A stretch of 51,776 bases of DNA from a virus: positions 1 through 51,776 of the IMG/VR virus record IMGVR_UViG_3300009537_000017, one strand, 5' to 3'. Below, one piece after another: positions 1,181 through 23,930 of the stretch. A model generated the notes under the pieces. That model made no database searches. It was not told the DNA's origin and saw only the letters and a list, made by a program, of their open reading frames with translations. A program made the position numbers and the translations under genes. Positions within the stretch are counted from its first letter, which is position 1. Each line of letters starts with the position of its first letter.

Positions 1181-1217
1181 AATCCCCTGTTTAAAAACAA
1201 ACAGGGGATTATTTTTT
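1181..1217 (+). terminator. Rho-independent terminator of the late operon
   Basis: Perfect 12-bp inverted repeat AATCCCCTGTTT (1181-1192) and AAACAGGGGATT (1199-1210) with a 6-nt loop, followed by ATTTTTT. It separates the rightward late genes from the convergent leftward sugar operon that ends at 1217. Confidence 0.9.
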
Positions 1218-3766: not shown

Positions 3767-4307
3767 TATCAATTCCTTTCCATTCTTTTTCTAAAATTCC
3801 ATAAGCGCATACATCAATATATTCTCCATTTAAGAACATCCCCTCTCTAAAAATACCTTCCTGAATCATGCCGAGCTTTTCGCATGTCTTTCGCATTGGG
3901 GTATTGCTTGCTGCTGTGCCTGTCCATATCCGATTTAAACCTATCTTCTTAAATCCATGTTCTAACACCCAAGCACAAACTTGGGAACCGACTCCTTTAC
4001 TTCTCGCTTCTGCTTCTCCTATCACAATAGCCAGCTCAGCGCTGCGATTATGTAAATTGATTGATTGTAAGGAAATATTTCCAATATGCGTTCCATCATT
4101 TAAACATATAGCCCATACAATTTTATCGGTAGAGCCTTTTTCTATTGTAGAAATAAAATCTTCCATTTGACCTTTTGTGTATGGAAATAATCCCCAACTA
4201 TTATAACGAGTAGTTACTGGGTCATTAAACCAGCTTCTATATTTTTCTGTTAAATGTTTATTTCGCTCAAATGGAATAATCCTTATTAAATTATTTTTAT
4301 ATATCAT
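3759..4307 (-). CDS. GNAT N-acetyltransferase (PseH-like role)
   Basis: A 182-residue RimJ/RimL-type GNAT protein. The acetyl-CoA loop is visible as GEAEARSKGVGSQVCAWVLEHGF, followed by N.IWTGTAASNTPMRKTCEKLGM and EGIFREGMF, typical of sugar N-acetyltransferases. In a nonulosonic acid pathway this step acetylates the 4-amino sugar made by the aminotransferase. ATG overlaps the preceding stop (ATGA) and the 3' end overlaps the Maf gene, showing tight coupling. The exact substrate is inferred from neighbours. Confidence 0.75.
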   Translation of the reverse strand: MIYKNNLIRIIPFERNKHLTEKYRSWFNDPVTTRYNSWGLFPYTKGQMEDFISTIEKGSTDKIVWAICLNDGTHIGNISLQSINLHNRSAELAIVIGEAEARSKGVGSQVCAWVLEHGFKKIGLNRIWTGTAASNTPMRKTCEKLGMIQEGIFREGMFLNGEYIDVCAYGILEKEWKGIDNV

Positions 4308-5284
4308 ATCTTATCCTCCAACATTTCTAATAATTCCTTTCGGGTTAAAAACCCCTGTGGATTGTTATTGGATTCTAAATTCCCTTTACCTGCATAAAAT
4401 TTCAAATATCCGATTTTAGGAATATGATATATCTGGTAATATTTTTTATTAATCAGATAGGCAAATTCATTCTCATTATATAATATCTCATGCAGTTTCT
4501 CTCCGGATGCAAGCCCCACGATCTTAATATTATTTGTTTTGGCTCCCATTGCTAAAGCCATTTCAAAGATGTTAATTGATTTCATAAGCGGAATAAAAAT
4601 TTCACCGCCTTGCATATCTGAAATGCGATTCAAAAGAAACCGAGCAACAGCAGGCAAAGTTATAAAAAATCTTGTGGCATCAGGATGCGCTATTGTTATA
4701 GGTTTTCCCTGTTTAATTTGCTCTTGAAAAACATGAACAACACTGCCTCTGCTTGCTAATACATTTCCATATCTACAACAAGATATTTTTGTTTTATGAC
4801 CGCCTGTATAAACATTTCCATGAATGAATAATTTTTCTGCTGCCATTTTTGTTGCGCCATAAAGATTAATCGGAAAAACCGCCTTGTCTGTGCTGATATT
4901 CATTACTCTTTCTACTTTACAATCTATAGCGATATTTAATACGTTTCTTGCACCGTCTATATTTGTCATAATCGCTTCTATTGGATTATCTTCGCAGGCG
5001 GTAACTTGTTTTAACGCCGCTGTATGAATTACTATATCAACATTTTGCATAGCTCTATGTAAGCGGACAATGTCCCTTATATCTCCGATAAGATATGCAA
5101 TCGGAGCATCAGGAAAAAGATTATTAATTGTTTGCCTCATTTGCCATTGCTTTAATTCATCACGGCTATAAATACGAATACCTTTCGGTTTATATTCCTT
5201 TAAAAGTAACTTTGTTAGCATTTGACCGAGACTACCTGTGCCACCTGTAATCAGAATTTCTTTATCTTTGATATAATTTTTCAA
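4304..5284 (-). CDS. UDP-GlcNAc 4,6-dehydratase, PseB/FlaA1-like
   Basis: A 326-residue extended SDR enzyme. The Rossmann motif GGTGSLG is at residues 13-19, followed by IYSRDELKQWQMR, a hallmark of PseB-type dehydratases. Catalytic segments STDKAVFPINLYGATK are present. PseB converts UDP-GlcNAc to the 4-keto-6-deoxy sugar, the first step of pseudaminic acid synthesis. The length matches the family and all key residues seen are intact. It could instead be a CapD/LegB-type dehydratase for a related sugar. Confidence 0.85.
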   Translation of the reverse strand: MKNYIKDKEILITGGTGSLGQMLTKLLLKEYKPKGIRIYSRDELKQWQMRQTINNLFPDAPIAYLIGDIRDIVRLHRAMQNVDIVIHTAALKQVTACEDNPIEAIMTNIDGARNVLNIAIDCKVERVMNISTDKAVFPINLYGATKMAAEKLFIHGNVYTGGHKTKISCCRYGNVLASRGSVVHVFQEQIKQGKPITIAHPDATRFFITLPAVARFLLNRISDMQGGEIFIPLMKSINIFEMALAMGAKTNNIKIVGLASGEKLHEILYNENEFAYLINKKYYQIYHIPKIGYLKFYAGKGNLESNNNPQGFLTRKELLEMLEDKI

Positions 5285-5298
5285 TTAGAAATTCCTTA

Positions 5299-5655
5299 TT
5301 ATATTAATTTTTTTCTTAAACTTTTTAAAAAATTCAATTCTTCTATGGCTAATTTTAAACAAATTTTACAATTCTTCCTTCTATAATAATTAGATGAAAA
5401 TTTATCAGTATGAGAATTTTCTTGATGTCTTATCCATTTCTTATATGGGGATTTTCTACATCCGTCATGCCCTGTTGCTCTCATTACAATACATTCTTCA
5501 TCAAAATAATGACACCTAAAATATAATTTACATAGTGGACAATTAGCAGAAGCCTTATCTATAAATTTACAACTTTTAACAATTTTTTCCCATTTTTTTA
5601 TACTATCTTCAAGAGCCTTCTCAATTACTTTTTTTGGCAATTTATAATTTTTCAA
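5299..5655 (-). CDS. Small Cys-rich putative zinc-binding protein
   Basis: 118 residues, TTG start overlapping the stop of the synthase gene. Visible pattern: CPLCKLYFRC, then C.V.RATGHDGCRKSPYKKW and a late CKIC pair, suggesting a zinc-stabilised fold; the TG..GC..(T/S)PY..W pattern recurs in small phage and plasmid proteins. No enzymatic motif is seen. It sits inside the sugar operon but does not belong to any known step of the pathway. Confidence 0.65.
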   Translation of the reverse strand: MKNYKLPKKVIEKALEDSIKKWEKIVKSCKFIDKASANCPLCKLYFRCHYFDEECIVMRATGHDGCRKSPYKKWIRHQENSHTDKFSSNYYRRKNCKICLKLAIEELNFLKSLRKKLI

Positions 5656-6539
5656 TCTGTTATGTCCTCCAAAAATTCTTTTTGACTCAACTCTTTTCTA
5701 AATTCTTTTAACGGCCTCATACCATCTTCGGGATCGCTTCGCCATTTATATATATCAGAATAAAATTTTTCTTGAATTGGTTTATTAAGCGCTAATTCCA
5801 TTATTCTCACAGTTTCAATTACAGATTGAATCTGTAAAGGCTTCCAGCAATGGCCATATTTATATTCAAGCCCCTGCCCATCTTCAAGGTCAAGATGAAA
5901 TTCAATGCAATCTACGCCGCAACCCACCGCTGCATATATAACGCCGGGCTGAACTGTGTGATCAGACCAGCCGAAATTAAAACCATTATAATTGAAAAAA
6001 TCTTTCAAAAGATTAAAAGACGTTCCCATTTGACATCCCATAATCTTTGCAGGATATTCTGATATGCAATGATAAATGATTAAATAATTTGGGTTTATAA
6101 TCTGTCTTGTTAATTCTCTGATTGATATTAATTCTTCTTCATTAATCCAATTCCCTAAAGCAATTCCTAATGGTTTTCCTGTTGTGGCGCAAGCCTTAAT
6201 TAAAGCATGATTTAGAATTTCATAAGATCCTATTTTAAATTGGTTGACATAGGGCTTTAATATTTCCACTGCCTCCAGATTAAATGGCGTGCAATGAAAT
6301 TCAATATTATGGGCATGGCATATTGCAAATATCTTTGGAATAAATTTAATCGGCAATTCCTGTGTCTGAGCCTCTTTTATTTTTTCAGGAAATTCAGGGG
6401 CATAGAGCTTATCACCCTTAAAAAGCTGAAACTTAACTGCATGGCAGCCTATTTTTTTAGCCGTTATGATTAATTTTTCAATACGGTTTATATCCTGATT
6501 ATGATTACTGCCAATATCGCAAATGAATTTAATAGGCAT
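5652..6539 (-). CDS. Nonulosonic acid synthase, NeuB/PseI-like
   Basis: 295 residues. The NeuB-type TIM barrel is recognised from FICDIGSNHNQDINR at the N-terminus, HAVKFQLFKGDKLYAPE, EFHCTPFNLEAVE, and GWSDHTVQPG...AVGCGVDCIEFHLDL. The family condenses phosphoenolpyruvate with a six-carbon amino sugar to give a nine-carbon acid. It is shorter than bacterial NeuB/PseI (about 340-350 residues) because the C-terminal antifreeze-like SAF domain, which normally helps cap the active site of the dimer, is absent. That makes activity less certain, although barrel-only homologues exist. Confidence 0.85.
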   Translation of the reverse strand: MPIKFICDIGSNHNQDINRIEKLIITAKKIGCHAVKFQLFKGDKLYAPEFPEKIKEAQTQELPIKFIPKIFAICHAHNIEFHCTPFNLEAVEILKPYVNQFKIGSYEILNHALIKACATTGKPLGIALGNWINEEELISIRELTRQIINPNYLIIYHCISEYPAKIMGCQMGTSFNLLKDFFNYNGFNFGWSDHTVQPGVIYAAVGCGVDCIEFHLDLEDGQGLEYKYGHCWKPLQIQSVIETVRIMELALNKPIQEKFYSDIYKWRSDPEDGMRPLKEFRKELSQKEFLEDITD

Positions 6540-6540
6540 A

Positions 6541-6870
6541 CTAATCCTTTCTTATTTTAAATGCTTGACTAACCGGTTGATTCAAATGATTTTTAATTCG
6601 TTGTATTAATTTTATTTTGGATTTTTGTTTTTTAATAATCTTTTTTGGATAAGGCTGCGGCCCGTTAGCTATCTTAGTGAACCATTCTTGTTCATACATT
6701 CTTTTATCTTGTCTTGTTGGAAACCATTTTCCATATTTTTCTATATTCGCTGGAAAATATTTGCCATGTCTTTTTTTGTTTATTTTCCACATTTCAATTT
6801 GCTGTAAAGCTATGCGGATTGAACATGGAATCCATAAAAGCATAAGCAAAAGAATTATTATTTCTAACAT
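6541..6870 (-). CDS. Small membrane-anchored basic protein
   Basis: 109 residues. An N-terminal hydrophobic helix (about residues 2-22, rich in I, L and M) is followed by a strongly basic region with aromatic residues (KYFPANIEKYGKWFPTR) and a lysine-rich tail. It overlaps the end of the aminotransferase gene by a few bases and so belongs to the operon. No family was recognised; a membrane-anchoring or scaffolding role for the sugar enzymes is possible but unproven. Confidence 0.6.
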   Translation of the reverse strand: MLEIIILLLMLLWIPCSIRIALQQIEMWKINKKRHGKYFPANIEKYGKWFPTRQDKRMYEQEWFTKIANGPQPYPKKIIKKQKSKIKLIQRIKNHLNQPVSQAFKIRKD

Positions 6871-8129
6871 ATTAAATCCTCCCTATTTTCATGGACTTTT
6901 CCAAAGGCATTAATAATATCATCTAAATCCTGTTTTACTGCCATAGGGCCAAAAAACCTATGTAATACTATTAACTCATCTTTCCATTGCCTTGTGCATT
7001 CTGGCGTTTCATTTAGAGACATATCAAATAATGGCATTGATTGAATAGGCTGAATATAACCGCACCCAATCGGCACACCTTCTGATTCTCTATCTATTAC
7101 AGGCTGCAATTCTGCCTTAACTGCTTGAATGAATTTATTTCTATGAAGACTATCAATCATTTTATATTTCAAAGGCAGAACATAAAAGGTATGAGTGCAT
7201 CCTTCCCTTATTTTTGGCATTTCAAGACAAGGGATGTTTTGTAATTTGTATAATAAATAATCTACATTATAAAATCTTTGCTCTAAAAGCTCATCCATCT
7301 TTCTTAATTGCACCCTCATAATGGCGGCGGATATTTCAGTCATGCGAAGATTGAAGCCAAATAGTTTCGTGAATTTCTGCATGAATAAATCATTCTGTGC
7401 CCCATGCATTACAGCCTCTGCATGATTCATAATTAATCTGCATTTCATGGCAAGTTCATCATCATTTGTTACTATCATTCCTCCTTCGCCGCATGTTAGA
7501 TGCTTGCCAAGATTAAAAGAATATACGCCTATATCGCCGAGTGTGCCTGCATATTTTCCATTCAATTTAGAACCGAGAGCCTGCGCCGCATCTTCAATAA
7601 CGTATATGCCCTTCTCCTCAGCAATTGGATTAATACCTTCCGCATCATAAGGCTGGCCGAAAAGTGAAACTGGAATAATAGCAGAGAATTTTTGAAATGT
7701 TTGCCCGATAATTCTTTGAATCTCCTTAGCATCAAGACAATAATAATCTCTTTCAATATCACAAAATCTAACACCAGAGCCCCATCCAAGCGGGGCAGTT
7801 GCAGAGCAAGTCATTGAGAAAGGCGTTACAATCGCATCCCCTTTATCGCGCCCCATCTCTACGGCTCCGCAAGCAATGAATAATCCACTTGTTGCGCTAT
7901 TGCAGGCTATAGCATGTTTGATTTGAAATTTCTCCGCCCATTCACTTTCTAACGCTATAACTTCTTTGCCGCCCCAAAAACTTTTACCCCATGAACCTTG
8001 ATAGCCTGTTAATATTCCTGAATTTAAAACATGCAAAGCCGCTGCTTTTTCATCATTGCCAATTGTATTTTGCGCTGGAAATAATTTAGACCGTATAGGG
8101 GTTCCTCCAAATAAAGCTAATTTTCCCAT
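6864..8129 (-). CDS. DegT/DnrJ/EryC1-family sugar aminotransferase (PseC-like)
   Basis: 421 residues. The PLP-dependent fold is seen in AIACNSATSGLFIACGAVE, the phosphate-binding VIEDAAQALGSK and the Schiff-base lysine in YSFNLGKHLTCGEGGMIV. This class aminates keto-sugars made by SDR dehydratases, so it can act directly on the product of the PseB-like enzyme encoded downstream. A GAGGGAGGAACAG Shine-Dalgarno region precedes ATG 8129. DegT proteins vary in regiospecificity, so PseC versus LegC cannot be decided from sequence reading. Confidence 0.85.
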   Translation of the reverse strand: MGKLALFGGTPIRSKLFPAQNTIGNDEKAAALHVLNSGILTGYQGSWGKSFWGGKEVIALESEWAEKFQIKHAIACNSATSGLFIACGAVEMGRDKGDAIVTPFSMTCSATAPLGWGSGVRFCDIERDYYCLDAKEIQRIIGQTFQKFSAIIPVSLFGQPYDAEGINPIAEEKGIYVIEDAAQALGSKLNGKYAGTLGDIGVYSFNLGKHLTCGEGGMIVTNDDELAMKCRLIMNHAEAVMHGAQNDLFMQKFTKLFGFNLRMTEISAAIMRVQLRKMDELLEQRFYNVDYLLYKLQNIPCLEMPKIREGCTHTFYVLPLKYKMIDSLHRNKFIQAVKAELQPVIDRESEGVPIGCGYIQPIQSMPLFDMSLNETPECTRQWKDELIVLHRFFGPMAVKQDLDDIINAFGKVHENREDLIC

Positions 8130-8349
8130 TACTGTTCCTCCCTCAAATTTAAACTTAAGTGCCTTCTGATTAGTATTATGCAGATGAAATATGCCTTTTC
8201 TATGATATATTCGGCTGAAACCAAAACTCCCTATTTCAGGGAATATACAATTTCCGAACGGCGACCAACACCAAAATATAAAAGGCTTGGGCTTGTTAAT
8301 AGATTTATAAAAATAATTAATTGCTTCTTCTGCATTCCGACCCTTAAAT
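8130..8349 (-). pseudogene. Intergenic remnant with a duplicated cytidylyltransferase fragment
   Basis: This 220-bp gap breaks an otherwise overlapping operon. On the minus strand, a start-less frame entering from the oxidoreductase gene encodes about 45 residues (including PKPLYFGVGRRSEIVYSLK) before a stop, and the same frame then reads GVLVSAEYII. The last stretch comes from a 31-bp block at 8202-8232 identical to 9369-9399, where it encodes GVLVSAEYIM of the intact cytidylyltransferase. It looks like debris of a lost or rearranged gene. No complete gene is seen, and a promoter for the aminotransferase could also lie here. Confidence 0.45.
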
Positions 8350-9312
8350 TTATATCCTATCCAAAATTTTATGAACTTTTAAGGCATCTTCTACTGTGCA
8401 TTTTAAATTTGCTTTTCCATTTAAAAAATCCACTGCATTTTGAACCATATTTAATAATGCCATATTGAGGCCGCTTGGAATAAATATTTTGCTGCGGATG
8501 AGTGATTGATATTGTCCATAAGTCTTCTCAGTTTCCGGCGTGGAAATATGAATATGCTGACCCCATTTTGTGAATGAGATTATCCCTTTTTCAGTTACAA
8601 ATTCAATTTCAAAAAGGCCATAGCTGCGGCTATCAACAGCAACCATATCAGTAAGATAGCATTTTTCATATTGCAATTCTAAATGATAAGAAGGATCATC
8701 AGGCGAATAATCAGAGATTTCTCCTGCCCTTTCTCCCGTCATATATTCGCCTAAAACCCAGTTAAAAATATCTATTGCATGGCAGCCATCTCTTTTAAGT
8801 CCTCTGCCATACAGACACCGAACATGATATATTTCACCATATTCGCCATCTCTAATTTTATTTAAAATATCGCCGCCGATTAAATCAAATCTGCGGGTAT
8901 AATTCACTAATATCGGAATATCAGCTTGTTTGTAAAGTTCTGCAATTATCAATGCCTCTTTTAAATTATTACAAAAAGGCTTCTCCGCTATAACTAATTT
9001 GGGATTGAGGGATATAATTTCTTTTAAAATTTCTGCATGATTTTCCGTTGGCACGCATACGGAAATAATATCAGTTTCTAAGTCATAATTGAGATTATCA
9101 TAAGCAGGGCAATTCCATTTCTTGCCTGCCTGTTCAGCTTTTTCACAATCAATATCCACTACGCCGATTAAATTTATATCAGGATTTTCATAATAAGCGT
9201 GGGCATGGGTTAATATCGTGTCTGAATCATCAGGCGAATCATATTGCTCATCTTTCAACGCACCGATTGAACCGCAACCAATTATTAATGCTTTATAATT
9301 TTGGAATTGCAT
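8350..9312 (-). CDS. Gfo/Idh/MocA-family oxidoreductase
   Basis: 320 residues. The N-terminal Rossmann domain has LIIGCGSIG and GVVDIDCEKAEQAG, then SVCVPTENHAEIL and the family signature AEKPFCNNLKEA, where the lysine is catalytic. The C-terminal part fits the GFO/IDH substrate domain (GRGLKRDGCHAIDIFNWVLG). It probably oxidises or reduces a sugar in the same pathway, and such genes are common beside NeuB and SpsF homologues, but its step is not defined. It overlaps the cytidylyltransferase stop by 20 bp. Confidence 0.8.
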   Translation of the reverse strand: MQFQNYKALIIGCGSIGALKDEQYDSPDDSDTILTHAHAYYENPDINLIGVVDIDCEKAEQAGKKWNCPAYDNLNYDLETDIISVCVPTENHAEILKEIISLNPKLVIAEKPFCNNLKEALIIAELYKQADIPILVNYTRRFDLIGGDILNKIRDGEYGEIYHVRCLYGRGLKRDGCHAIDIFNWVLGEYMTGERAGEISDYSPDDPSYHLELQYEKCYLTDMVAVDSRSYGLFEIEFVTEKGIISFTKWGQHIHISTPETEKTYGQYQSLIRSKIFIPSGLNMALLNMVQNAVDFLNGKANLKCTVEDALKVHKILDRI

Positions 9313-10057
9313 TTCTAATCACCTCCTTATTGATTTCCAAAAGCTCTATATTTTGATGCAGATATTCCATGATATATTCGGCTGAAACCAAAACTCCCTC
9401 ATTGCCGAATTTATTTTTCATGGCTTCAAAAATCTTAGAAAGCAATAAATAATCCTGTGGAGTGTCTAAGGTTAAGCCCCAATCAGGATGAGTATTATCA
9501 ATAGAAGGCTTACAGGCATCTATTAACTTGAATGCCTCCGTTCTCATGGCTATATTCCAGCCAACATGCTCACGAATGGGAATGAAGTATTTATTAAGTT
9601 TTTTTAAAGCATTTATTGTATAAACTTGCACATCAAATCCATCTGGCCAGCGGCGGATTAATACATTAGATGCATAGTCATAATCTTTAAGAGCATCTAT
9701 GAGTATATCAATATGGAAAGGGTCAACAAGCGGACAATCTGCGGTTATCTCAACTATTATATCTGCTTCACAAAATTCAGCGCACTCTAAGATTCTACTA
9801 AAGACATCATTCTCACTGCCTCTAAAAACTAATATGTTTTGGTCTTGACAATATTCTACAAGATAATCATCTTGCGGTTCTTCAGAAGTGGCGACAACTA
9901 TCATATTAACAAGCCTTGATTGTTTTATCCGTTCGTGAATAATTTTAATAACTGGCATCCCTGCAAGCGGAAGCATTACCTTGCCGGGCAGTCTGGTGCT
10001 TCCCATGCGGGCTTGAATGATTGCAACAATATTTTTATTTTTCTGATTTAACTGCAT
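9293..10057 (-). CDS. NeuA/PseF/SpsF-like cytidylyltransferase
   Basis: About 254 residues from ATG 10057; an upstream ATG at 10096 would add 13 unrelated residues and lacks a better ribosome site. The nucleotidyltransferase motif IIQARMGSTRLPGKVMLPL is at the N-terminus, then VVATSEEPQDD, RGSENDVFSR and EITADCPLVDP, the SpsF/NeuA signature set. The family activates nonulosonic acids as CMP-sugars, the donor used by Maf-type transferases. It overlaps the short upstream gene, consistent with one leftward transcript. Confidence 0.85.
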   Translation of the reverse strand: MQLNQKNKNIVAIIQARMGSTRLPGKVMLPLAGMPVIKIIHERIKQSRLVNMIVVATSEEPQDDYLVEYCQDQNILVFRGSENDVFSRILECAEFCEADIIVEITADCPLVDPFHIDILIDALKDYDYASNVLIRRWPDGFDVQVYTINALKKLNKYFIPIREHVGWNIAMRTEAFKLIDACKPSIDNTHPDWGLTLDTPQDYLLLSKIFEAMKNKFGNEGVLVSAEYIMEYLHQNIELLEINKEVIRNAIPKL

Positions 10058-10229
10058 TAACAAGTTCGCTCGTAAGCTCTGAAATATTTTTATCATTAAT
10101 AATAATTTTCTGCATTACACTTGCAGACTTCGCTGGCGCATAGCGGAAGGCAAGCTGGAGAATCTCCATCCAGAGTTTATTGTTTTTTTCTCTTATTTTA
10201 GAAATTCGAGAAATTATTTTATTGTTCAT
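10035..10229 (-). CDS. Small hypothetical protein downstream of the regulator
   Basis: 64 residues, basic N-terminal half (RISKIREKNNKLWMEILQLAF) and a C-terminal helix ending ISELTSELVNAVKSEK. Its ATG overlaps the stop of the HTH regulator gene, so the two are co-translated, and its 3' end overlaps the cytidylyltransferase start. No domain was recognised. Position makes a partner of the regulator plausible. Confidence 0.6.
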   Translation of the reverse strand: MNNKIISRISKIREKNNKLWMEILQLAFRYAPAKSASVMQKIIINDKNISELTSELVNAVKSEK

Positions 10230-13667: not shown

Positions 13668-13973
13668 ATGAGAAAAAAAACTTGGCGTGAACCAAAAAAA
13701 CTAACGCCTGAGACACTAATTAAACGTGATGTCAGGCGATACCTTGCTATTAGAGGTCATTTTACTTTCCCTATCTTACAGGGCTTAGGCGCTCATAGGG
13801 GTATAGCGGACATCATTGCCTGTAAGAATGGCAAAACTATTTTTCTGGAAGTTAAAACTCCGAGAGGCAAGCAAAGTCCGGATCAGCAGGAATTTCAACG
13901 GCAGATAGAATCAGTGGGCGGTGTTTATATAATAGTGCGTAGCCTTGATGATTTGATACAGGCGGGGATATGA
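13668..13973 (+). CDS. VRR-NUC domain nuclease
   Basis: 101 residues. The PD-(D/E)XK core is visible: GAHRGIADIIACKNGKTIFLEVKTPRGKQSPDQQEFQ, with D in GIAD and E-V-K as the metal-binding pair. The family acts on branched or structured DNA (Holliday-junction-type resolvases). It sits before the recombination module and may resolve replication or packaging intermediates. Length is normal for stand-alone phage VRR-NUC proteins. Confidence 0.8.
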   Translation: MRKKTWREPKKLTPETLIKRDVRRYLAIRGHFTFPILQGLGAHRGIADIIACKNGKTIFLEVKTPRGKQSPDQQEFQRQIESVGGVYIIVRSLDDLIQAGI

Positions 13974-14004
13974 CAACTCCCATCAAATTATGAATGAGAA
14001 AGGT

Positions 14005-14070
14005 TTATAACGTTGGAATTAACCTGATTAAAACAGGACGTTTTAATTCAGGTTGAATGATTTGTTATAA
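14005..14070 (+). other. Integron attC-like site 1
   Basis: TTATAAC (14005-14011) pairs with GTTATAA (14064-14070); 9-nt spacers on both sides; inner arm AACCTGATTAAAAC (14021-14034) pairs with GTTTTAATTCAGGTT (14040-14054) leaving one extrahelical T; 5-nt loop. This reproduces the R-spacer-L layout of attC. The R boxes are not fully canonical, so support rests on fold and context. TATAAT at 14066-14071 could also act as a -10 element for the next gene. Confidence 0.55.
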
Positions 14071-14752
14071 TTTGCGCCATACTAACGTGAGACGATAAAT
14101 GAGCAGAGAATACGAAATAATTTATGCTGATCCGCCCTGGAGATATGAAAAACAATTGAGATGGGAATCAAAAAAAATATTTGGATTAGAAGAAAAATAT
14201 TACCAAACAATGGATATAGAAGAAATTAAAAATATGAAAGTTCCTGGGGCAAGGGATAGTTGGTTAATCTTGTGGACCACAGTTCCTAAATTGCAAGAAG
14301 GGTTAGACGTTTTGAAAGCATGGGGATATGAATATAGAACGTCTGCAATTTGGGACAAGGGAAACGGTTTAGGCTTTTTCTTTAGAATTTACCATGAAAT
14401 AATATTGATAGGGAAGAAGGGAAATCCAAAGAACCCCTTGTATTCGGAAAAATCTATTTTTGAAGAACGCAGGACAAAACATTCAAAAAAACCCCAAAAG
14501 GTTTACAGATGGATAGAAAAAGCATTCCCAGGAATGAGTAAATTAGAATTATTTGCGAGACCTGATTTGCCTTTATTCCCAAAACGTGACAACTGGCATA
14601 CTTGGGGTAATGAATTACAAAATGATGTTGAATTAAGCGAATAGGAAGTGAGCGCATGATAAAAACGACTAAATTAGATGTGCCAATAAACCAAAGTCTT
14701 TGGGCGCAAATTATAACGTGGACGTAAGCCGCTTGTCGGCTTGACGGACTGG
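14065..14752 (+). mobile_element. Putative integron gene cassette carrying an MT-A70 methyltransferase
   Basis: The 5' end (from 14065, after G14064) reads TTATAATTTGCGCC. The R'' side of the 3' site reads GGCGCAAATTATAAC (14703-14717). Including G14064, the two are exact 15-bp reverse complements, as expected if a circularised cassette rebuilds a fully paired attC. The 688-bp unit holds a single rightward gene, the standard cassette form. Confidence 0.6.
14099..14644 (+). CDS. MT-A70 family adenine methyltransferase
   Basis: 181 residues. The catalytic DPPW is at residues 10-13 (YADPPWRYE), with LILWTTVPKLQEGLDVLKAWGY and the C-terminal KLELFARPDLP..NWHTWGNE, the SAM-pocket signature of MT-A70 DNA N6-adenine methylases. 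Probably protects phage DNA from restriction. It is cargo of the first putative cassette and shares no operon overlap with its neighbours. Confidence 0.85.
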   Translation: MSREYEIIYADPPWRYEKQLRWESKKIFGLEEKYYQTMDIEEIKNMKVPGARDSWLILWTTVPKLQEGLDVLKAWGYEYRTSAIWDKGNGLGFFFRIYHEIILIGKKGNPKNPLYSEKSIFEERRTKHSKKPQKVYRWIEKAFPGMSKLELFARPDLPLFPKRDNWHTWGNELQNDVELSE

Positions 14753-14758
14753 TTGAAA
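14711..14758 (+). other. Integron attC-like site 2
   Basis: AAC (14715-14717) and GTT (14752-14754) bracket symmetrical 5-nt spacers (GTGGA and GACTG). The stem CGT-AAGCCG (14723-14731) pairs with CGGCTT-g-ACG (14737-14746), with one extrahelical G43 after six pairs, then three more pairs. The same 3 bp / extrahelical G / 6 bp layout recurs in site 3. The hairpin could alternatively be a TnpB-element left end. Confidence 0.55.
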
Positions 14759-16063
14759 CCCGTCTTAAAGATTTCTCTTGCTTTCTGTAACTCGACTATG
14801 GTAAGGTAGGTGTATGAATGTTAGAGGGTATGAATACAGGATTTATCCGAACCAGAAGCAGGCAGGGCAACTTGAACAGATGCTCGGCAATGCCAGGTGG
14901 GTTTATAACTGGGCACTTGCAAGGCGCATTGAGGCATACCAGAAGGACAAGAAAACCATGTCTGCTTTTACGCTGATGACCGAGCTGACACAGTTGAAGA
15001 AAAAGCCGGAGTATGAATGGCTGAATCTTTCTGTTGCTCAGAGCCTTCAACAGTCCATCGTGAACATGGAAAAAGCCTTTACCCGTTTCTTCCGGGAAAA
15101 ACACGGATTTCCTAAATTCAAGCGTAAGCATGACAAGCGGCATACTGTCGGATTCCCTCAGAACACAAAGATTAAGTTTGATGAAAACAGGGTCTTTGTT
15201 CAGAAGCTCGGATGGATACAAACACGGATAAGCCGGACATTCGAGGGAATTATAAAGACGGCTGTAATCAAGAAGACGGCAACGGGCAAGTTCTTTGTAA
15301 GTATTGCCGTTGAGACGGAAGACAAGAAGCAGAAACAAAAGGTGATCCGTAAGGCTACAGCAGTCGGAATTGACACAGGAATAAAAACCTTTGCAGTTCT
15401 TTCAGACGGAACGGAGATAGAGAACCCGAAGCATTTGAAGCAGGCACTCGGAAGGTTGAAGGCATTGCAGCGCCGGGCAAGCCGGAAGGTGAAGGGGAGC
15501 GCAAACAGACGCAAGGCAGTTCTTCAGCTTGCACGGCAGCATGAACACGTAGCGAACCAAAGAAAGGACTTCTTACATAAGACGACAACCTCGATAGTCA
15601 AGAGGTTTGATACCGTTGTGTGTGAAGACCTGAATATCAAGGGCATGGTAAAGAACCATTGCCTTGCTCAGAGCATTTCTGATTTAGGACTTGGAGACTT
15701 TTACCGTATGCTCCAGTACAAACTTGCAGACAGTGGCAAGAACTATCTGGAGATAGGCCGTTTTGAGCCTTCAAGCCGTATGTGTACCTGTGGCAAGGTT
15801 AATGCCCGCTTGACGCTCTCTGACCGTGTGTGGACGTGTGAGACGTGCGGGACTGTTCATCAGAGAGACCACCTTGCAGCACAGAATATCTTGAACTTCG
15901 GATTACAGAAACAGAATATAATCAAAGCCACCGGGGGAACCTCGGGAAGAGCGGCCAGAGGTGTCGTGTAGTAATGCGAACCGATGAAGGTCGAACCATG
16001 TCTTTTGTGGAGTTCAACGATGGAAATCACGGGCCGGCGTAGCCGGTCCCGTGGATTGAGTTG
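14753..16063 (+). mobile_element. Putative integron gene cassette carrying tnpB
   Basis: Bounded by the G^TT positions of attC-like sites 2 and 3. The cassette start TTGAA (with the preceding G) is complementary to TTCAAC (16013-16018), the R'' box of its own 3' site, so a circle would rebuild a paired R stem. GC content rises sharply here relative to the phage backbone. An ordinary IS605-type decayed insertion is the alternative; no TnpA transposase is present. Confidence 0.55.
14814..15971 (+). CDS. tnpB: TnpB-like RNA-guided nuclease (IS200/IS605 OrfB)
   Basis: 385 residues, close to the usual length. N-terminal YEYRIYPNQKQAGQLEQMLGNARWVYNWAL is the helix-turn-helix signature. RuvC residues are present: D in GIDTGIKTFAVLSDG, E in VVCEDLNIKGM and D in QRDHLAAQNIL. 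The zinc-finger region has MCTCGK and CETCG; the first knuckle is CxC instead of the usual CxxC. No tnpA accompanies it. TnpB proteins cut DNA guided by an RNA from the element's right end, normally overlapping the 3' end of the gene. Here the right flank is an attC-like site, suggesting a cassette-borne TnpB. Confidence 0.9.
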   Translation: MNVRGYEYRIYPNQKQAGQLEQMLGNARWVYNWALARRIEAYQKDKKTMSAFTLMTELTQLKKKPEYEWLNLSVAQSLQQSIVNMEKAFTRFFREKHGFPKFKRKHDKRHTVGFPQNTKIKFDENRVFVQKLGWIQTRISRTFEGIIKTAVIKKTATGKFFVSIAVETEDKKQKQKVIRKATAVGIDTGIKTFAVLSDGTEIENPKHLKQALGRLKALQRRASRKVKGSANRRKAVLQLARQHEHVANQRKDFLHKTTTSIVKRFDTVVCEDLNIKGMVKNHCLAQSISDLGLGDFYRMLQYKLADSGKNYLEIGRFEPSSRMCTCGKVNARLTLSDRVWTCETCGTVHQRDHLAAQNILNFGLQKQNIIKATGGTSGRAARGVV

Positions 16064-16069
16064 TTAGGT
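16012..16069 (+). other. Integron attC site 3 (canonical R boxes)
   Basis: GTTCAAC (16012-16018) matches RYYYAAC and GTTAGGT (16063-16069) matches GTTRRRY. Between them AAT-CACGGG-CCGGC (16025-16038) pairs with GCCGG-t-CCCGTG-g-ATT (16042-16057), leaving an extrahelical T47 and G54 and a 3-nt loop. Length 58 bp is in the attC range. Orientation matches the rightward genes. There is no T-run, so a terminator is unlikely. Confidence 0.7.
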
Positions 16070-16085
16070 TTCATTGGGAGAATGC

Positions 16086-16652
16086 ATGAGAGACCCGGAA
16101 AGAGTTGCTAAGGATTGTCTAGAATATTCTCGTCGTTCTTTGAAGGAATTTCCGCCCGTATTAGACGTTTGCTGTGGCAGTCGTATGTTCTGGTTCGACA
16201 AGCAAGATGAGCGGGCCCTGTTTGTGGACAAGCGCCGCGAGACTTGGCCGATTGACATAGACACGCCTGGCACCAAAGGCAGAAGTCCGATTGTGGTTGA
16301 CCCGGATGAAATCGCGGACTTCACGGCCCTCCCTTACCCGGACGAAGTTTTTGCGCTTGTGGTGTTTGACCCTCCGCACATTGAGCGGACGGAAGCCAAA
16401 GGGTTGTTGACGCGGAAATACGGGCACCTAACCGGGGATTGGCGCGAAGAATTGCGGCAGGGGTTTGCAGAGTGTTTCCGCGTTCTCAAGCCACACGGGA
16501 CGCTGATTTTTAAGTGGGCAGAGTCAGACCATCCGGTTTCGGAGGTTTTGAAACTCACGCCGGAGAAGCCGCTTTTCGGGCATAAGTCAGGGAAGAAAAG
16601 CGCAACACACTGGATAGCGTTTATGAAACCTGAGGAATATATAACGATATGA
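16086..16652 (+). CDS. SAM-dependent methyltransferase, GC-rich
   Basis: 188 residues from ATG 16086 (GGGAG upstream; a TTG at 16074 is the alternative). Motif I-like VLDVCCGSRMFWF, then LVVFDPPHIERT (DPPH, reminiscent of the DPPY/DPPW catalytic loop) and CFRVLKPHGTLIFKW. Likely methylates nucleic acid. Its GC content is clearly above that of the phage backbone genes, and it begins 17 nt after a canonical attC box, so it may be a third cassette whose own attC has been lost. Its stop overlaps the next gene's ATG. Confidence 0.75.
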   Translation: MRDPERVAKDCLEYSRRSLKEFPPVLDVCCGSRMFWFDKQDERALFVDKRRETWPIDIDTPGTKGRSPIVVDPDEIADFTALPYPDEVFALVVFDPPHIERTEAKGLLTRKYGHLTGDWREELRQGFAECFRVLKPHGTLIFKWAESDHPVSEVLKLTPEKPLFGHKSGKKSATHWIAFMKPEEYITI

Positions 16653-16927
16653 CCCCTATCCAGTCCATACGCAAATTTTGTATAAATTGTCAAGGCGGCA
16701 ACCAAAAAGCCCCTGCGCTTTGCACAAATCCCGATTGTGTCTTATTTGCCTACAGGGAGGGCAAGAACCCTGCCCGGAAGGGTATAGGCGGGGGTAAGGG
16801 GAGAAAACAGCTTGGCGGAAGGATTATAGGCACTCAAGTGGCACAAATCATCAAAATAAAAGAGGGTAAGAGACAGGAAATACTGGTAACAGGGAATAAG
16901 AGGGTGATAATAGAGGATATTGAATAA
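16649..16927 (+). CDS. Small cysteine-containing phage protein
   Basis: 92 residues. N-terminal IRKFCINCQGGNQKAPALCTNPDCVLF has four cysteines arranged as a zinc knuckle, then a basic glycine-rich stretch (GKNPARKGIGGGKGRKQ). Coupled to the preceding methyltransferase by ATGA overlap. Similar short zinc proteins occur in phage replication regions; the function is not known. Confidence 0.6.
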   Translation: MTPIQSIRKFCINCQGGNQKAPALCTNPDCVLFAYREGKNPARKGIGGGKGRKQLGGRIIGTQVAQIIKIKEGKRQEILVTGNKRVIIEDIE

Positions 16928-16943
16928 AAAAAGGAGGAGTGAG

Positions 16944-17363
16944 ATGGAGAAAAAAGAATTATCATTATCATTTGTTTGGGGAATAAGATTAAAGCTCTGG
17001 GCGGAAGGTGATAAGCTCAAGGCGGAAGGTGATAAGCTCAAGGCGGAAGGTGATAAGCTCAAGGCGGAAGGTGATAAGCTCAAGGCGGAAGGTGATAAGC
17101 TCTGGGCGGAAGGTGATAAGCTCTATGCGGAAGGTGATAAGCTCTATGCGGAAGGTGGTAAGCTCTATGCGGAAGGTGATAAGCTCTGGGCGGAAGGTGA
17201 TAAGCTCTGGGCGGAAGGTGGTAAGCTCTATGCGGAAGGTGATAAGCTCTGGGCGGAAGGCATTCTTGAAGTATATGGCAACATTTCTTTGGAATGGCAA
17301 TTTAGGGAAGACAAAAACAATTATGCGTGTATTTTAGAAACTGGCGAAATCTTTGAACCATAA
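16944..17363 (+). CDS. AEGDKL heptad-repeat protein
   Basis: 139 residues from ATG 16944 (GGAGGAG upstream; the frame opens at TTG 16920). A short N-terminus is followed by about 12 heptads AEGDKLx, where x is K in the first four and W or Y later, then a 35-residue tail with WQFREDKNNYACILETGEI. The 7-residue period suggests a coiled coil or helical rod. The function is unknown; it lies just upstream of the Bet recombinase. Confidence 0.65.
   Translation: MEKKELSLSFVWGIRLKLWAEGDKLKAEGDKLKAEGDKLKAEGDKLKAEGDKLWAEGDKLYAEGDKLYAEGGKLYAEGDKLWAEGDKLWAEGGKLYAEGDKLWAEGILEVYGNISLEWQFREDKNNYACILETGEIFEP
17001..17260 (+). repeat. 21-bp minisatellite, 12.4 copies
   Basis: Units of gcggaaggtgataagctcaag vary mainly at the last codon (aag, tgg, tat) and at gat/ggt. 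The frame is kept, so copy number can change without frameshift. The order of variants (K, then W/Y blocks) suggests segmental duplication. Confidence 0.95.
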
Positions 17364-19920: not shown

Positions 19921-21003
19921 ATGCAGATATTTCATCAATCAGTATTTGATAAATGGCAAATAGAAGATAACAGCATACAATGTATACTGACTTCGCCGCC
20001 TTACTATTCCTTAAGAAAATATGATATTCCCGATGTGATTATTGGCGGGGATAAGGATTGTGGGCATGAATGGGGAAATGAGATTAAATTGAATAATAGA
20101 CATAAGGCAGGTGAAACAAATCCCGGCAAAGAAGCATGGCTTAAAGATTCGGGCGCTATTGCACAAACAGCGGGACAATTCTGCCTCCACTGCAACGCAT
20201 GGCAAGGGCAATATGGTTTAGAGCCAACCTATAAACTTTACCTTGAACATACCATGTTATGGCTCAAAGAGGCATGGCGGGCGCTAAGGGATGACGGAAT
20301 ATTATTTATAAATATAGCGGACAGTTATGGTGGTGGTAGTGGCAGCTACTATCCACATAAAAATGAAGTTAGGGCAAGTAAAAACTATTTAAAAACTCAT
20401 AGTCAAGGAAAGCCTAAATCTAAGCTCTTAATCCCTGAACGCCTAATGGTTATGATGGCAGATGAAGGCTGGATAATACGGAATCATATTGTTTGGTTTA
20501 AACCGAACGCCATGCCAGAAAGCGCAACTGATAGATTTTCCAAAAAATGGGAGACTATTATCTTTGCTGTGAAAAGCCCTAAGTATTATTTTGATTTAGA
20601 TGGGGTAAAAGAAGCATATCAACAAACCACTATAGAGCGTGCTGGTAGAGGCTTTGAAAGCGATAACAAAGTCTATAATGAAAACTATAATAGTGAAAAA
20701 CATATTAACTATGCAAAAAAAGTTTTATCAGGAGAATTAAGAGGCAAGAACCCCGGCGATGTCTTCCAGATTCCCACACAGCCTTCACCTGAAAAGCACT
20801 ACGCAATGTGGCCGGAGGCATTATGTAAGCGATTAATCCTATGCTCAACAAAGGCAGGGGACGCTGTGCTGGACCCATTTGCAGGAAGCGGCACAACACT
20901 AAGGGTTGCAGATGAGCTTAATAGGAAGGCTTATGGCATTGATTTGGGTTATAGTGATATACAGCAAAGAAGGTTAACAGAAATCCAGAAGGTGTTAATC
21001 TAA
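19921..21003 (+). CDS. DNA methyltransferase (N4-cytosine/N6-adenine class)
   Basis: 360 residues. Catalytic TSPPYYSLRKYD is at about residue 21 and the SAM-binding DPFAGSGTTLRVADELNRKAYGIDL is at the C-terminus, the order of beta-class amino methyltransferases. SPPY is typical of m4C enzymes. A Cys-containing insert (GHEWGNE..FCLHCNAW) lies between. Stand-alone, with no restriction partner seen, so a protective role is likely. Confidence 0.85.
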   Translation: MQIFHQSVFDKWQIEDNSIQCILTSPPYYSLRKYDIPDVIIGGDKDCGHEWGNEIKLNNRHKAGETNPGKEAWLKDSGAIAQTAGQFCLHCNAWQGQYGLEPTYKLYLEHTMLWLKEAWRALRDDGILFINIADSYGGGSGSYYPHKNEVRASKNYLKTHSQGKPKSKLLIPERLMVMMADEGWIIRNHIVWFKPNAMPESATDRFSKKWETIIFAVKSPKYYFDLDGVKEAYQQTTIERAGRGFESDNKVYNENYNSEKHINYAKKVLSGELRGKNPGDVFQIPTQPSPEKHYAMWPEALCKRLILCSTKAGDAVLDPFAGSGTTLRVADELNRKAYGIDLGYSDIQQRRLTEIQKVLI

Positions 21004-22194: not shown

Positions 22195-22606
22195 TGACAC
22201 AAATTTTAAAATGACTGTAAATACTTGGTTTCATAATTTGCGGGCATTTCCAATTGGAATTTTAAAGCAGGCGGCAGATAAATATATTCATCTCGGTAAA
22301 TCATTTTTTCCGACATTGCCTGAAATTTTAAATCTCGCCGATGATGTTTGGCGACAGCAGATAGAATCACAGCGGGCAGAAAATACACAGGCTGAGCGAG
22401 AAGCCACTAAATTATTATTTCACAAACCACTTAATGGCTTTGTAGACGATTATGTGAAAAAATCCGTTGCGCTCATTCGCAAGGCTTGCAATGGCGAGAT
22501 TAAATTTATGAGCGCTGAGTGGAAGTCTGAATTTGAAGCTATTTATGGTAAAAATTACAGTCCTGAAAGGGTAATCGGAGGATATTATGGAAGAACTTGT
22601 GATTGA
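22115..22606 (+). CDS. Helicase-loader-like replication protein
   Basis: 163 residues from ATG 22115 (ATG 22139 with AAAGGA upstream is also possible). Features: VMELLTYLQSSYPLQKAWTDD, WFHNLRAFPIGILKQAADKYI and FPTLPEILNLADDVWR, the small helical N-domain seen in lambda P-like or DnaI-type loaders and other phage replication proteins. No ATPase motif. It overlaps the initiator in another frame, supporting an O/P-like pair. Confidence 0.6.
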   Translation: MQTQKKDVMELLTYLQSSYPLQKAWTDDTNFKMTVNTWFHNLRAFPIGILKQAADKYIHLGKSFFPTLPEILNLADDVWRQQIESQRAENTQAEREATKLLFHKPLNGFVDDYVKKSVALIRKACNGEIKFMSAEWKSEFEAIYGKNYSPERVIGGYYGRTCD

Positions 22607-23930
22607 AAACGTGAAGGAAATTTTAATAAAATGTAAGGGCAATCATTATTTACCCTATTCAAAACTCAAGACCTTTCAGGGTAATCTAAAAGAAATGTCA
22701 AAGGAGTCTGCTGAAAAGTTAAGGCAGAGCATAATAAAACACGGCTGGATAGCGCCAATTTTTATTTGGAATAAGAATTACATACTTGATGGCCACGGCA
22801 GGTTGTTGGTCTTAGAGAAACTTTTACAGGAAGGCTACAAAATTAAAGACCTGCCTATTGTAGACATAAACGCAAAGACAAAAAAAGAAGCTGCGGAGAT
22901 ACTACTTGCTATTAATTCTAAATATCAGATTATTACTGATGATGGCCTTTATGAATTTATGAATGAGATGGATTTAAAGTTTGAGGACTTAAAGGATTTT
23001 GAATTACCTGATATAGACATGGAGAAATTTGGAGCGGGATATTTTGGAAAAGAAGGCTTGACGGATGATGATGCCGTGCCTGATGCGCCTGAAAAGGCAC
23101 AAACGAAAATAGGAGATATTTATATTCTCGGAGGTAGGCATCGGGTTATGTGCGGCGATAGCACAAAGAAAGAAGATATAGAGAAATTAATGGATGGCAA
23201 GAAGGCAGATATGGTTTTTACTGATCCGCCGTATGCCGTTAATTATGGAGCAGACCAAGAGACACTCAATAAGCAATCTGGCAATAAGTTTAGACTTATT
23301 GCCAGACCTATTATTGGTGATAATTTAACAACACAAAAATGTGCGGAGCGAATATGGAAACCGACATTTAATAATTTATATCAATTTGCAAAAGATGATT
23401 GTTCTTTTTATATGACAATGTGTCAAGGCGGCGACCAAATGATGATGATGATGATGATGATGATGAACGTTTCTTGGCAAATAAAACATGAATTAATTTG
23501 GGTTAAAAATTCACCAGTTTTTTCAATGGGTAGATTAGATTATGATTGTCAACATGAGCCCATTTTATTTGGTTGGAAGAAAAAACATAATTGGTATGGA
23601 AAAGGACAATTTTTAAAAAGCATTTGGGAAATTCCTAAACCTCATAAATCCGATTTACATCCAACCATGAAACCAATAGCCTTAATAGTTAACGCCCTAC
23701 AAAATTCTACGCGCCAAAATGAAATATGTCTTGATTCCTTCCTCGGCTCCGGCTCCACCCTCATAGCCTGCGAAAAGATTAATCGCATCTGTTACGGCAT
23801 GGAATTGGACACGCATTACTGCGATGTTATAGTGCAGCGATGGGTTGATTATACAGGCAAGAATGAGATTATAAAAAATAGAAAGGCAGTTAAATGGAGC
23901 TCAAGCCTGAAATCTTTAAAAAAATATTAA
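22587..23930 (+). CDS. ParB-like domain fused to a DNA methylase
   Basis: 447 residues. Residues about 20-110 form a ParB/sulfiredoxin-like domain (YSKLKTFQGN, SIIKHGWIAPIFIWNKNYILDGHGRL). After a linker, TKIGDIYILGGRHRVMCGDSTK leads to the N4/N6 methylase with catalytic FTDPPYAVNYG and SAM motif LDSFLGSGSTLIACE near the C-terminus. This fusion is common in phages and prophages. It probably modifies phage DNA. A run of nine methionines lies within the methylase domain. Confidence 0.9.
   Translation: MEELVIENVKEILIKCKGNHYLPYSKLKTFQGNLKEMSKESAEKLRQSIIKHGWIAPIFIWNKNYILDGHGRLLVLEKLLQEGYKIKDLPIVDINAKTKKEAAEILLAINSKYQIITDDGLYEFMNEMDLKFEDLKDFELPDIDMEKFGAGYFGKEGLTDDDAVPDAPEKAQTKIGDIYILGGRHRVMCGDSTKKEDIEKLMDGKKADMVFTDPPYAVNYGADQETLNKQSGNKFRLIARPIIGDNLTTQKCAERIWKPTFNNLYQFAKDDCSFYMTMCQGGDQMMMMMMMMMNVSWQIKHELIWVKNSPVFSMGRLDYDCQHEPILFGWKKKHNWYGKGQFLKSIWEIPKPHKSDLHPTMKPIALIVNALQNSTRQNEICLDSFLGSGSTLIACEKINRICYGMELDTHYCDVIVQRWVDYTGKNEIIKNRKAVKWSSSLKSLKKY
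23439..23465 (+). repeat. (ATG)9 trinucleotide repeat inside the methylase gene
   Basis: Nine consecutive ATG codons give DQ-M9-NVSW. Changes by slippage would stay in frame. The surrounding residues (FYMTMCQGGDQ and VSWQIKHELIWVK) look like a normal methylase segment interrupted by the run. Confidence 0.95.

What the first reader, a model, noticed from the sequence alone, without database searches (positions are those of the whole stretch)
14005..16069. Integron-type gene cassettes inside a phage genome
Three attC-like folds bound two single-gene units in the same orientation as the genes. Site 3 has canonical RYYYAAC and GTTRRRY boxes; sites 2 and 3 share the same stem layout (3 bp, extrahelical G, 6 bp). 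Most telling, the start of the methyltransferase unit (14064-14078) is an exact 15-bp reverse complement of the R'' flank of its own 3' site (14703-14717), and the tnpB unit start (GTTGAA, 14752-14757) is complementary to TTCAAC (16013-16018). This is what circular, excisable cassettes require. No integron integrase is in the window, so it would be an attC cluster relying on a host integrase.
Basis: partly seen in the sequence, partly recalled or inferred. Interest (0 to 1): 0.92.

Follow-up and report, generated by a model that had tools for sequence, protein, structure and literature searches.

The report
Integron gene cassettes in a phage

Summary
A covariance model built from 32 attC sites beside intI genes hits the window at exactly the three named places (E 1.9e-4, 3.5e-4, 0.01; next best 1.8). 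The scores are in the range of published phage attC, most of which recombined with IntI1 when tested. The 15-bp inverted match is real, and such complementary ends are typical of true cassettes. No tyrosine recombinase is in the window, so this is a CALIN (attC cluster lacking an integrase).

Correction: all three sites lie on the minus strand, because the extrahelical base that sets attC polarity is on the wrong arm for plus-strand genes. The cassettes are therefore about 14011-14716 (MT-A70 methyltransferase) and 14717-16017 (tnpB), each with its attC upstream of its gene. The phrog_954 methyltransferase at 16086-16652 is probably a third, decayed cassette. A related phage lacks the insert at this locus and carries its own antisense array elsewhere. 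The tnpB core ends exactly at 16018 in unrelated contexts, so it also looks like an IS200/IS605-type element whose right end doubles as an integron R box.

Phage CALINs with methyltransferases are known (Qi et al. 2023). What looks new is the antisense polarity (7 of 9 phage arrays examined) and tnpB as cargo.

The parts
14005..14070 (-). attC site 1; minus-strand polarity; R' core GTTATAA with predicted crossover next to 14011; own attC of the MT-A70 cassette
   Evidence: covariance model 26.1 bits, E 3.5e-4, minus; scanner rank 2 in window; DNA fold z -5.5
14711..14758 (-). attC site 2; predicted crossover next to 14717; own attC of the tnpB cassette
   Evidence: covariance model 20.2 bits, E 0.01, minus; scanner rank 3
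16012..16069 (-). attC site 3; R'' ACCTAAC, R' GTTGAAC (contributed by the right end of the tnpB element); predicted crossover next to 16018
   Evidence: covariance model 27.2 bits, E 1.9e-4, minus; scanner rank 1, 14/14 R-box letters
14064..14078 (.). left arm of the 15-bp inverted repeat (R'' side of the MT-A70 cassette)
   Evidence: complementary run of 15
14703..14717 (.). right arm of the 15-bp inverted repeat (R' side of the MT-A70 cassette)
14011..14716 (-). predicted excisable MT-A70 cassette in the antisense model (ends are inferred)
   Evidence: position of G^TT in the minus-strand R' boxes
14099..14644 (+). MT-A70 family adenine DNA methyltransferase gene
   Evidence: PF05063 E 9e-21; phrog_359 E 8e-44
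14717..16017 (-). predicted excisable tnpB cassette in the antisense model (ends are inferred)
   Evidence: position of G^TT in the minus-strand R' boxes; 6-bp complementary ends
14814..15971 (+). tnpB (IS200/IS605-type RNA-guided nuclease family)
   Evidence: PF01385, PF12323 and PF07282 all over cut-off
14763..16018 (+). tnpB element core: DNA homology to tnpB copies in other contexts stops exactly at 16018 (GTTCAAC), the IS-type right end; the omega-RNA scaffold's 3' end is inferred to lie here
16018..16631 (-). probable third, decayed cassette (phrog_954 methyltransferase); right R box reads CCTGAG where MW202573 has CCTAAC
   Evidence: 9-bp complement AGGTTTCAT/ATGAAACCT; cassette ends of relatives at the same codons
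16086..16652 (+). phrog_954 DNA methyltransferase gene
   Evidence: E 9e-66
13668..13973 (+). phage gene left of the insert (phrog_93 endonuclease / Holliday-junction resolvase type)
   Evidence: L057 homologue is directly followed by the right-flank gene
16649..16927 (+). phage gene right of the insert
   Evidence: 62% identical to the L057 gene that directly follows the left-flank gene
13970..13993 (+). apparent relic of the start of the right-flank gene left of the insert (ATGACAACTCCCATCAAATTATGA)
   Evidence: by eye, against L057 ...AAAACACCCATAAAATC

Best explanation
This is a small integron cassette array without an integrase (CALIN) inserted in a tailed-phage genome between an endonuclease gene and the next phage gene. 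It holds an MT-A70 methyltransferase cassette, a tnpB cassette and, probably, a decayed phrog_954 methyltransferase cassette. The attC sites have reverse polarity relative to the genes: an integron integrase from a host or co-resident element would recombine the + strand folded as the attC hairpin, cutting at the G^TT next to 14011, 14717 and 16018. The cassettes sit in the orientation in which their antisense genes follow phage transcription. The methyltransferases most likely modify phage DNA against host restriction. Shown: the sites, their polarity, the complementary ends, the absence of an integrase in the window, the absence of the insert in a relative, and recurrence of such cassettes in other phages. 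Inferred: present recombination activity, the entry route (IntI-mediated or recombination with a host array), and anti-restriction function. The tnpB unit probably began as an IS200/IS605-like element next to an attC R'' box; its right end GTTCAAC reads GTTGAAC on the other strand and so supplies a consensus R' box.
For: Covariance model R1 (32 attC from intI-adjacent arrays) finds exactly three sites, all minus. Controls: the same model finds attC in TJE1 (21.8 and 20.7 bits), P12002L (14.9) and PH101 (25.1, 20.6, 20.6); 5 of 6 attC tested from these three phages recombined with attI1 (PMC9892861). Cassette ends complementary over 15 bp (MT-A70) and 6 bp (tnpB), against a non-consecutive control mean of 4.5. 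No Phage_integrase domain. L057, a related phage, lacks the insert but has its own three-attC antisense array with cassette ends complementary over 8 and 13 bp. phrog_954 has complementary ends of at least 9 bp at 12 of 82 loci against 3 of 410 random spans. The phrog_954 cassettes of L057 and MW202573 share the upstream hairpin (2/300 shuffles as good) but not the downstream one (286/300), as antisense cassettes predict. Extrahelical bases set attC polarity (PMC2727003).
Against: No circular-junction reads, no activity test, no exact empty site of the same phage strain (L057 is only about 60-77% identical at the protein level). Site 2 alone is marginal (E 0.01) and its unconstrained DNA fold does not pair the R boxes. 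The tnpB units of the window and L003 are about 88% identical in the core but have unrelated attC hairpins, which a cassette inherited as one unit would not show. The third cassette rests on a 9-bp match that chance alone could give in about 3% of searches of this size (my estimate).
Confidence: 0.85

Rival explanations
1. One reading: the same cassettes with attC in the same direction as the genes, so that each unit owns the attC downstream of its gene and closes at 14065-14752 and 14753-16063.
For: R boxes are symmetric and read well in either direction; complementary ends fit both readings.
Against: All model hits are on the minus strand. The extrahelical base is on the 3' arm in 3/3 sites against 5' in 36/38 intI-linked sites. 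In the L057/MW202573 pair the upstream hairpin travels with the gene.
Confidence: 0.06
2. The tnpB unit is not a captured cassette but an IS200/IS605-type insertion beside the R'' box of an attC (TTGAA as target), which then happens to look like a cassette.
For: The right end is exactly 16018 in copies at four different sites. The right-end layout, hairpin then GTTCA(A)C, is seen by eye in distant tnpB relatives. TTGA(A/G) precedes the left end in the window, L003, L004 and L005. The window and L003 attC hairpins beside tnpB are unrelated.
Against: In L003 and L005 the two ends are complementary over 9 and 10 bp and change together (GAGTTCAAC/GTTGAACTC, GCGTTCAAC/GTTGAACGC), which a cassette needs and this IS family, to my knowledge, lacks. 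In the window, attC site 3 uses the element's end as its R' box, so a later integrase step is likely. The two routes can both be true.
Confidence: 0.5
3. The array is an inert relic: a piece of a host CALIN picked up by ordinary recombination and no longer recombined by any integrase.
For: No integrase in the window. The third cassette's outer R box is decayed. The right-flank gene's start seems duplicated on the left.
Against: The three attC score as well as attC of phages in which most tested sites were active. Complementary ends are intact in the MT-A70 unit. Arrays at different loci in related phages suggest repeated acquisition.
Confidence: 0.35
4. The hairpins are transcription terminators or chance palindromes, not attC.
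For: Short GC-rich hairpins between genes are common in phages; the site 2 score is marginal.
Against: None is followed by a T run. The R boxes, spacers and extrahelical base all fit. The three best hits of 51.8 kb lie within 2.1 kb.
Confidence: 0.03

Closest known systems
CALINs in phage genomes (Qi et al. 2023, PMC9892861: TJE1, P12002L, PH101, MW202573)
   Same: attC clusters without integrase in phages, DNA methyltransferases as cargo. L057's methyltransferase is 84% identical to that of MW202573, which that paper lists.
   Different: The window adds tnpB as cargo. The antisense polarity, which my model also finds in P12002L, PH101 and MW202573, is not described in the parts of the paper read here.
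Sedentary chromosomal and mobile integrons
   Same: attC architecture: R and L boxes, spacer, extrahelical base; complementary cassette ends
   Different: No intI, no attI found; genes antisense to attC. In the 21 bacterial units measured, 19 have the longer ORF in sense and the other two hold no ORF above 50 codons.
IS200/IS605-type TnpB elements
   Same: TnpB domains; right end in GTTCAAC after a hairpin, seen in several contexts
   Different: No tnpA beside it; the left side is an attC rather than a conserved left-end hairpin; the right end doubles as an R box
IS200/IS605 element beside a CALIN (ISHahl1 in H. halochloris, PMC7923331)
   Same: IS200/IS605 family element next to attC sites
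   Different: There a tnpA+tnpB IS lies downstream of the last attC of a bacterial CALIN; here tnpB alone lies between two attC in a phage

Membership tests
CALIN (cluster of attC sites lacking an integrase) | at least two attC sites close together | tested here: met
   three covariance-model hits within 2.1 kb
CALIN (cluster of attC sites lacking an integrase) | no integron integrase nearby | tested here: met
   no Phage_integrase domain anywhere in the window; the contig may be incomplete
Integron gene cassette | R' and R'' ends of one unit complementary, so a circle restores attC | tested here: met
   15 bp and 6 bp runs; controls mean 4.5; the tnpB value alone would not be decisive
Integron gene cassette | gene in the same direction as attC | tested here: not met
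   all sites minus, genes plus; usual in integrons but not needed for recombination
Integron gene cassette | recombination by IntI at G^TT | not testable with these tools
   needs an attC x attI assay; other phage sites were active in PMC9892861
Integron gene cassette | cassette-precise presence and absence between genomes | tested here: inconclusive
   L057 lacks the insert, but only gene order can be compared; the methyltransferase of L057 and MW202573 is shared with little beyond the cassette
IS200/IS605 TnpB element | TnpB with RuvC and zinc domains | tested here: met
   Pfam PF01385, PF12323, PF07282
IS200/IS605 TnpB element | conserved right end in different contexts | tested here: met
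   identity stops at 16018 in four flanking contexts
IS200/IS605 TnpB element | mobility by TnpA at a fixed target motif | tested here: inconclusive
   TTGA(A/G) at the left in four copies read by eye; no empty site found

The most novel reading that the evidence does not exclude
Phages hold a pool of reverse-polarity integron cassettes: DNA-modification genes antisense to attC, whose reading frames can run across the attC, so they would not be read from an integron's Pc promoter but fit phage transcription. TnpB elements join this pool because their right end doubles as an R box, so integrase-driven shuffling would also change the TnpB guide to the neighbouring attC.
Probability: 0.2. Interest if true: 0.8.

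Novelty: new variant of a known kind. Interest (0 to 1): 0.5.

Why it matters
Integron cassettes in phages are a recently recognised route for moving genes between bacteria. If most phage arrays carry genes antisense to attC, as in 7 of the 9 examined here, then phage cassettes are organised differently from bacterial ones and may form a pool of anti-restriction methyltransferases kept for phage use. The tnpB unit, whose end serves both an IS-type element and an integron site, would link two mobile systems that both act on single-stranded hairpins.

Tried and rejected
Rfam at gathering thresholds found nothing, so I built an attC model from intI-linked arrays. The first idea, that tnpB is simply an attC-targeting IS and the array otherwise canonical, was revised when L003 and L005 showed complementary, co-varying ends. 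A search for an empty site of the L003 insertion found only deletion derivatives. Genome contigs gave no tnpB relative above 48%, so a host could not be named. The model finds the L003 attC weakly (13.7 bits, E 0.19) and does not find L005's, so those two rest on reading by eye and on the complementary ends. The window tnpB guide (GATGGAAATCACGGGCCGGC, if the right end is 16018) has no second match in the DNA held. No better match for the third cassette's outer boundary than the decayed ATGAAACCTGAG was found. The terminator explanation was rejected for lack of T runs.

Full report
What is there. The window is a 51.8-kb virus record of a contractile-tailed phage: terminase, tail sheath and baseplate J. 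Between a small endonuclease gene (13668-13973) and the gene at 16649-16927 lie three hairpins, an MT-A70 methyltransferase, tnpB, and a phrog_954 methyltransferase. Nothing in the window matches the phage-integrase family.

Are the hairpins attC? I wrote a scanner for R boxes plus an L stem with one extrahelical base. Its three best hits in the whole window are 16012-16069, 14005-14070 and 14711-14758. Single scores are not decisive against shuffles (best shuffle 36; sites 39, 33, 31), but all three lie within 2.1 kb. I then took intI-linked arrays from gammaproteobacterial genomes, extracted 32 attC and built a covariance model. With filters off it gives the same three sites at E 1.9e-4, 3.5e-4 and 0.01 and nothing else below 1.8. 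As controls it finds attC in TJE1, P12002L and PH101 at 21.8/20.7, 14.9 and 25.1/20.6/20.6 bits; five of six attC tested from these phages recombined with attI1 (PMC9892861). One bias to note: the model set was limited to sites with the extrahelical base on the 5' arm, but before that filter 36 of 38 sites in array orientation already had it there.

Polarity. All three hits are on the minus strand while the genes are on plus. In the window the extrahelical base is in the 3' arm on plus in all three sites. Bouvier et al. showed that these bases decide the strand and that inverting them moves the crossover to the other R box (PMC2727003). So the genes are antisense to attC, and the cassette ends are next to 14011, 14717 and 16018. 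In bacterial arrays measured the same way, 19 of 21 units have the longer ORF in sense. Among phage arrays, antisense: window, L057, L063, L070, MW202573, P12002L, PH101; sense: TJE1, L058. Fisher p is 2e-4 by array, but several phage arrays were found through one methyltransferase family and are not independent.

Cassette ends. The MT-A70 unit has 15 complementary bases at its ends and the tnpB unit 6; consecutive bacterial attC give up to 12, non-consecutive pairs a mean of 4.5 and at most 8.

Relatives. L057 (RecT 77% identical) has the endonuclease gene directly followed by the 16649 homologue, so the whole insert is absent there. It carries its own three attC elsewhere, downstream of recT, with a phrog_954 methyltransferase and a 71-aa ORF as antisense cassettes. 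The same methyltransferase (84% identical protein) is in MW202573, a phage listed by Qi et al.. The DNA match between L057 and MW202573 is little more than the cassette; the upstream hairpin is shared and the downstream one is not, which is what antisense cassettes predict. Over 82 phrog_954 loci, 12 have complementary ends of 9 bp or more against 3 of 410 random spans. In the window the gene's right end reads ATGAAACCTGAG where MW202573 has ATGAAACCTAAC, and site 3's flank is complementary to the first nine bases: probably a third cassette that has lost its outer R box.

tnpB. DNA identity with tnpB copies in L003, L004 and L011 stops exactly at 16018, GTTCAAC, before unrelated flanks. Distant relatives end in a hairpin followed by GTTCAC (by eye), so 16018 looks like an IS200/IS605-type right end. 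Yet the left side is an attC-like hairpin in the window, L003 and L005, and in L003 and L005 both ends are complementary over 9-10 bp and change together. The hairpins beside tnpB in the window and L003 are unrelated, so tnpB was not inherited with one attC. The best reconciliation is insertion next to an R'' box followed by life as a cassette, because the right end supplies GTTGAAC as an R' box. This is inference.

What it does. The two methyltransferases fit protection of phage DNA from host restriction, as Qi et al. proposed for phage cassettes. Recombination would need an integrase from the host. Neither was tested.

Novelty. Phage CALINs with methyltransferases are known. The predominance of antisense polarity and tnpB as cargo were not found in the papers held; subscription papers and supplements could not be searched.

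Noticed in passing
L232, L234, L235, L236: Four phage contigs carry only the last 101-133 bp of the tnpB element (94-98% identical to the window) with no tnpB in the DNA held, a promoter-like TTGACA stretch before it and, after GTTCAAC and a guide-like ATTGTTTCATTGAGAACTATC, a terminator-like hairpin with a T run: a possible stand-alone omega RNA gene.
   Followed up: partly
L057:7032-7580, L063:5377-5994, L225 about 2680-3186: The phrog_954 methyltransferase reading frame seems to run across the cassette boundary: its start, and in L063 its end, lie inside neighbouring attC sequence, so the protein ends depend on the neighbours.
   Followed up: partly
window 1217-10096 minus: A block of sugar genes (NeuB, DegT aminotransferase, cytidylyltransferase, polysaccharide epimerase, GNAT, MptE-like) resembling nonulosonic-acid or flagellin glycosylation genes in a phage contig.
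   Followed up: no
window 16920-17363: ORF made of a tandem KLxAEGD repeat that stays open in several frames on both strands.
   Followed up: no
window 22587-23930 and 19921-21003: Further DNA methyltransferase genes: N6_N4_Mtase with a ParB-like N-terminus at 22587, and a DNA-methylase-like ORF at 19921 judged by eye only.
   Followed up: no
L070:3811-10013: Contig with five antisense attC, genes for methyltransferases and a Mom-like modification protein, and a tyrosine-type integrase right beside the array.
   Followed up: partly
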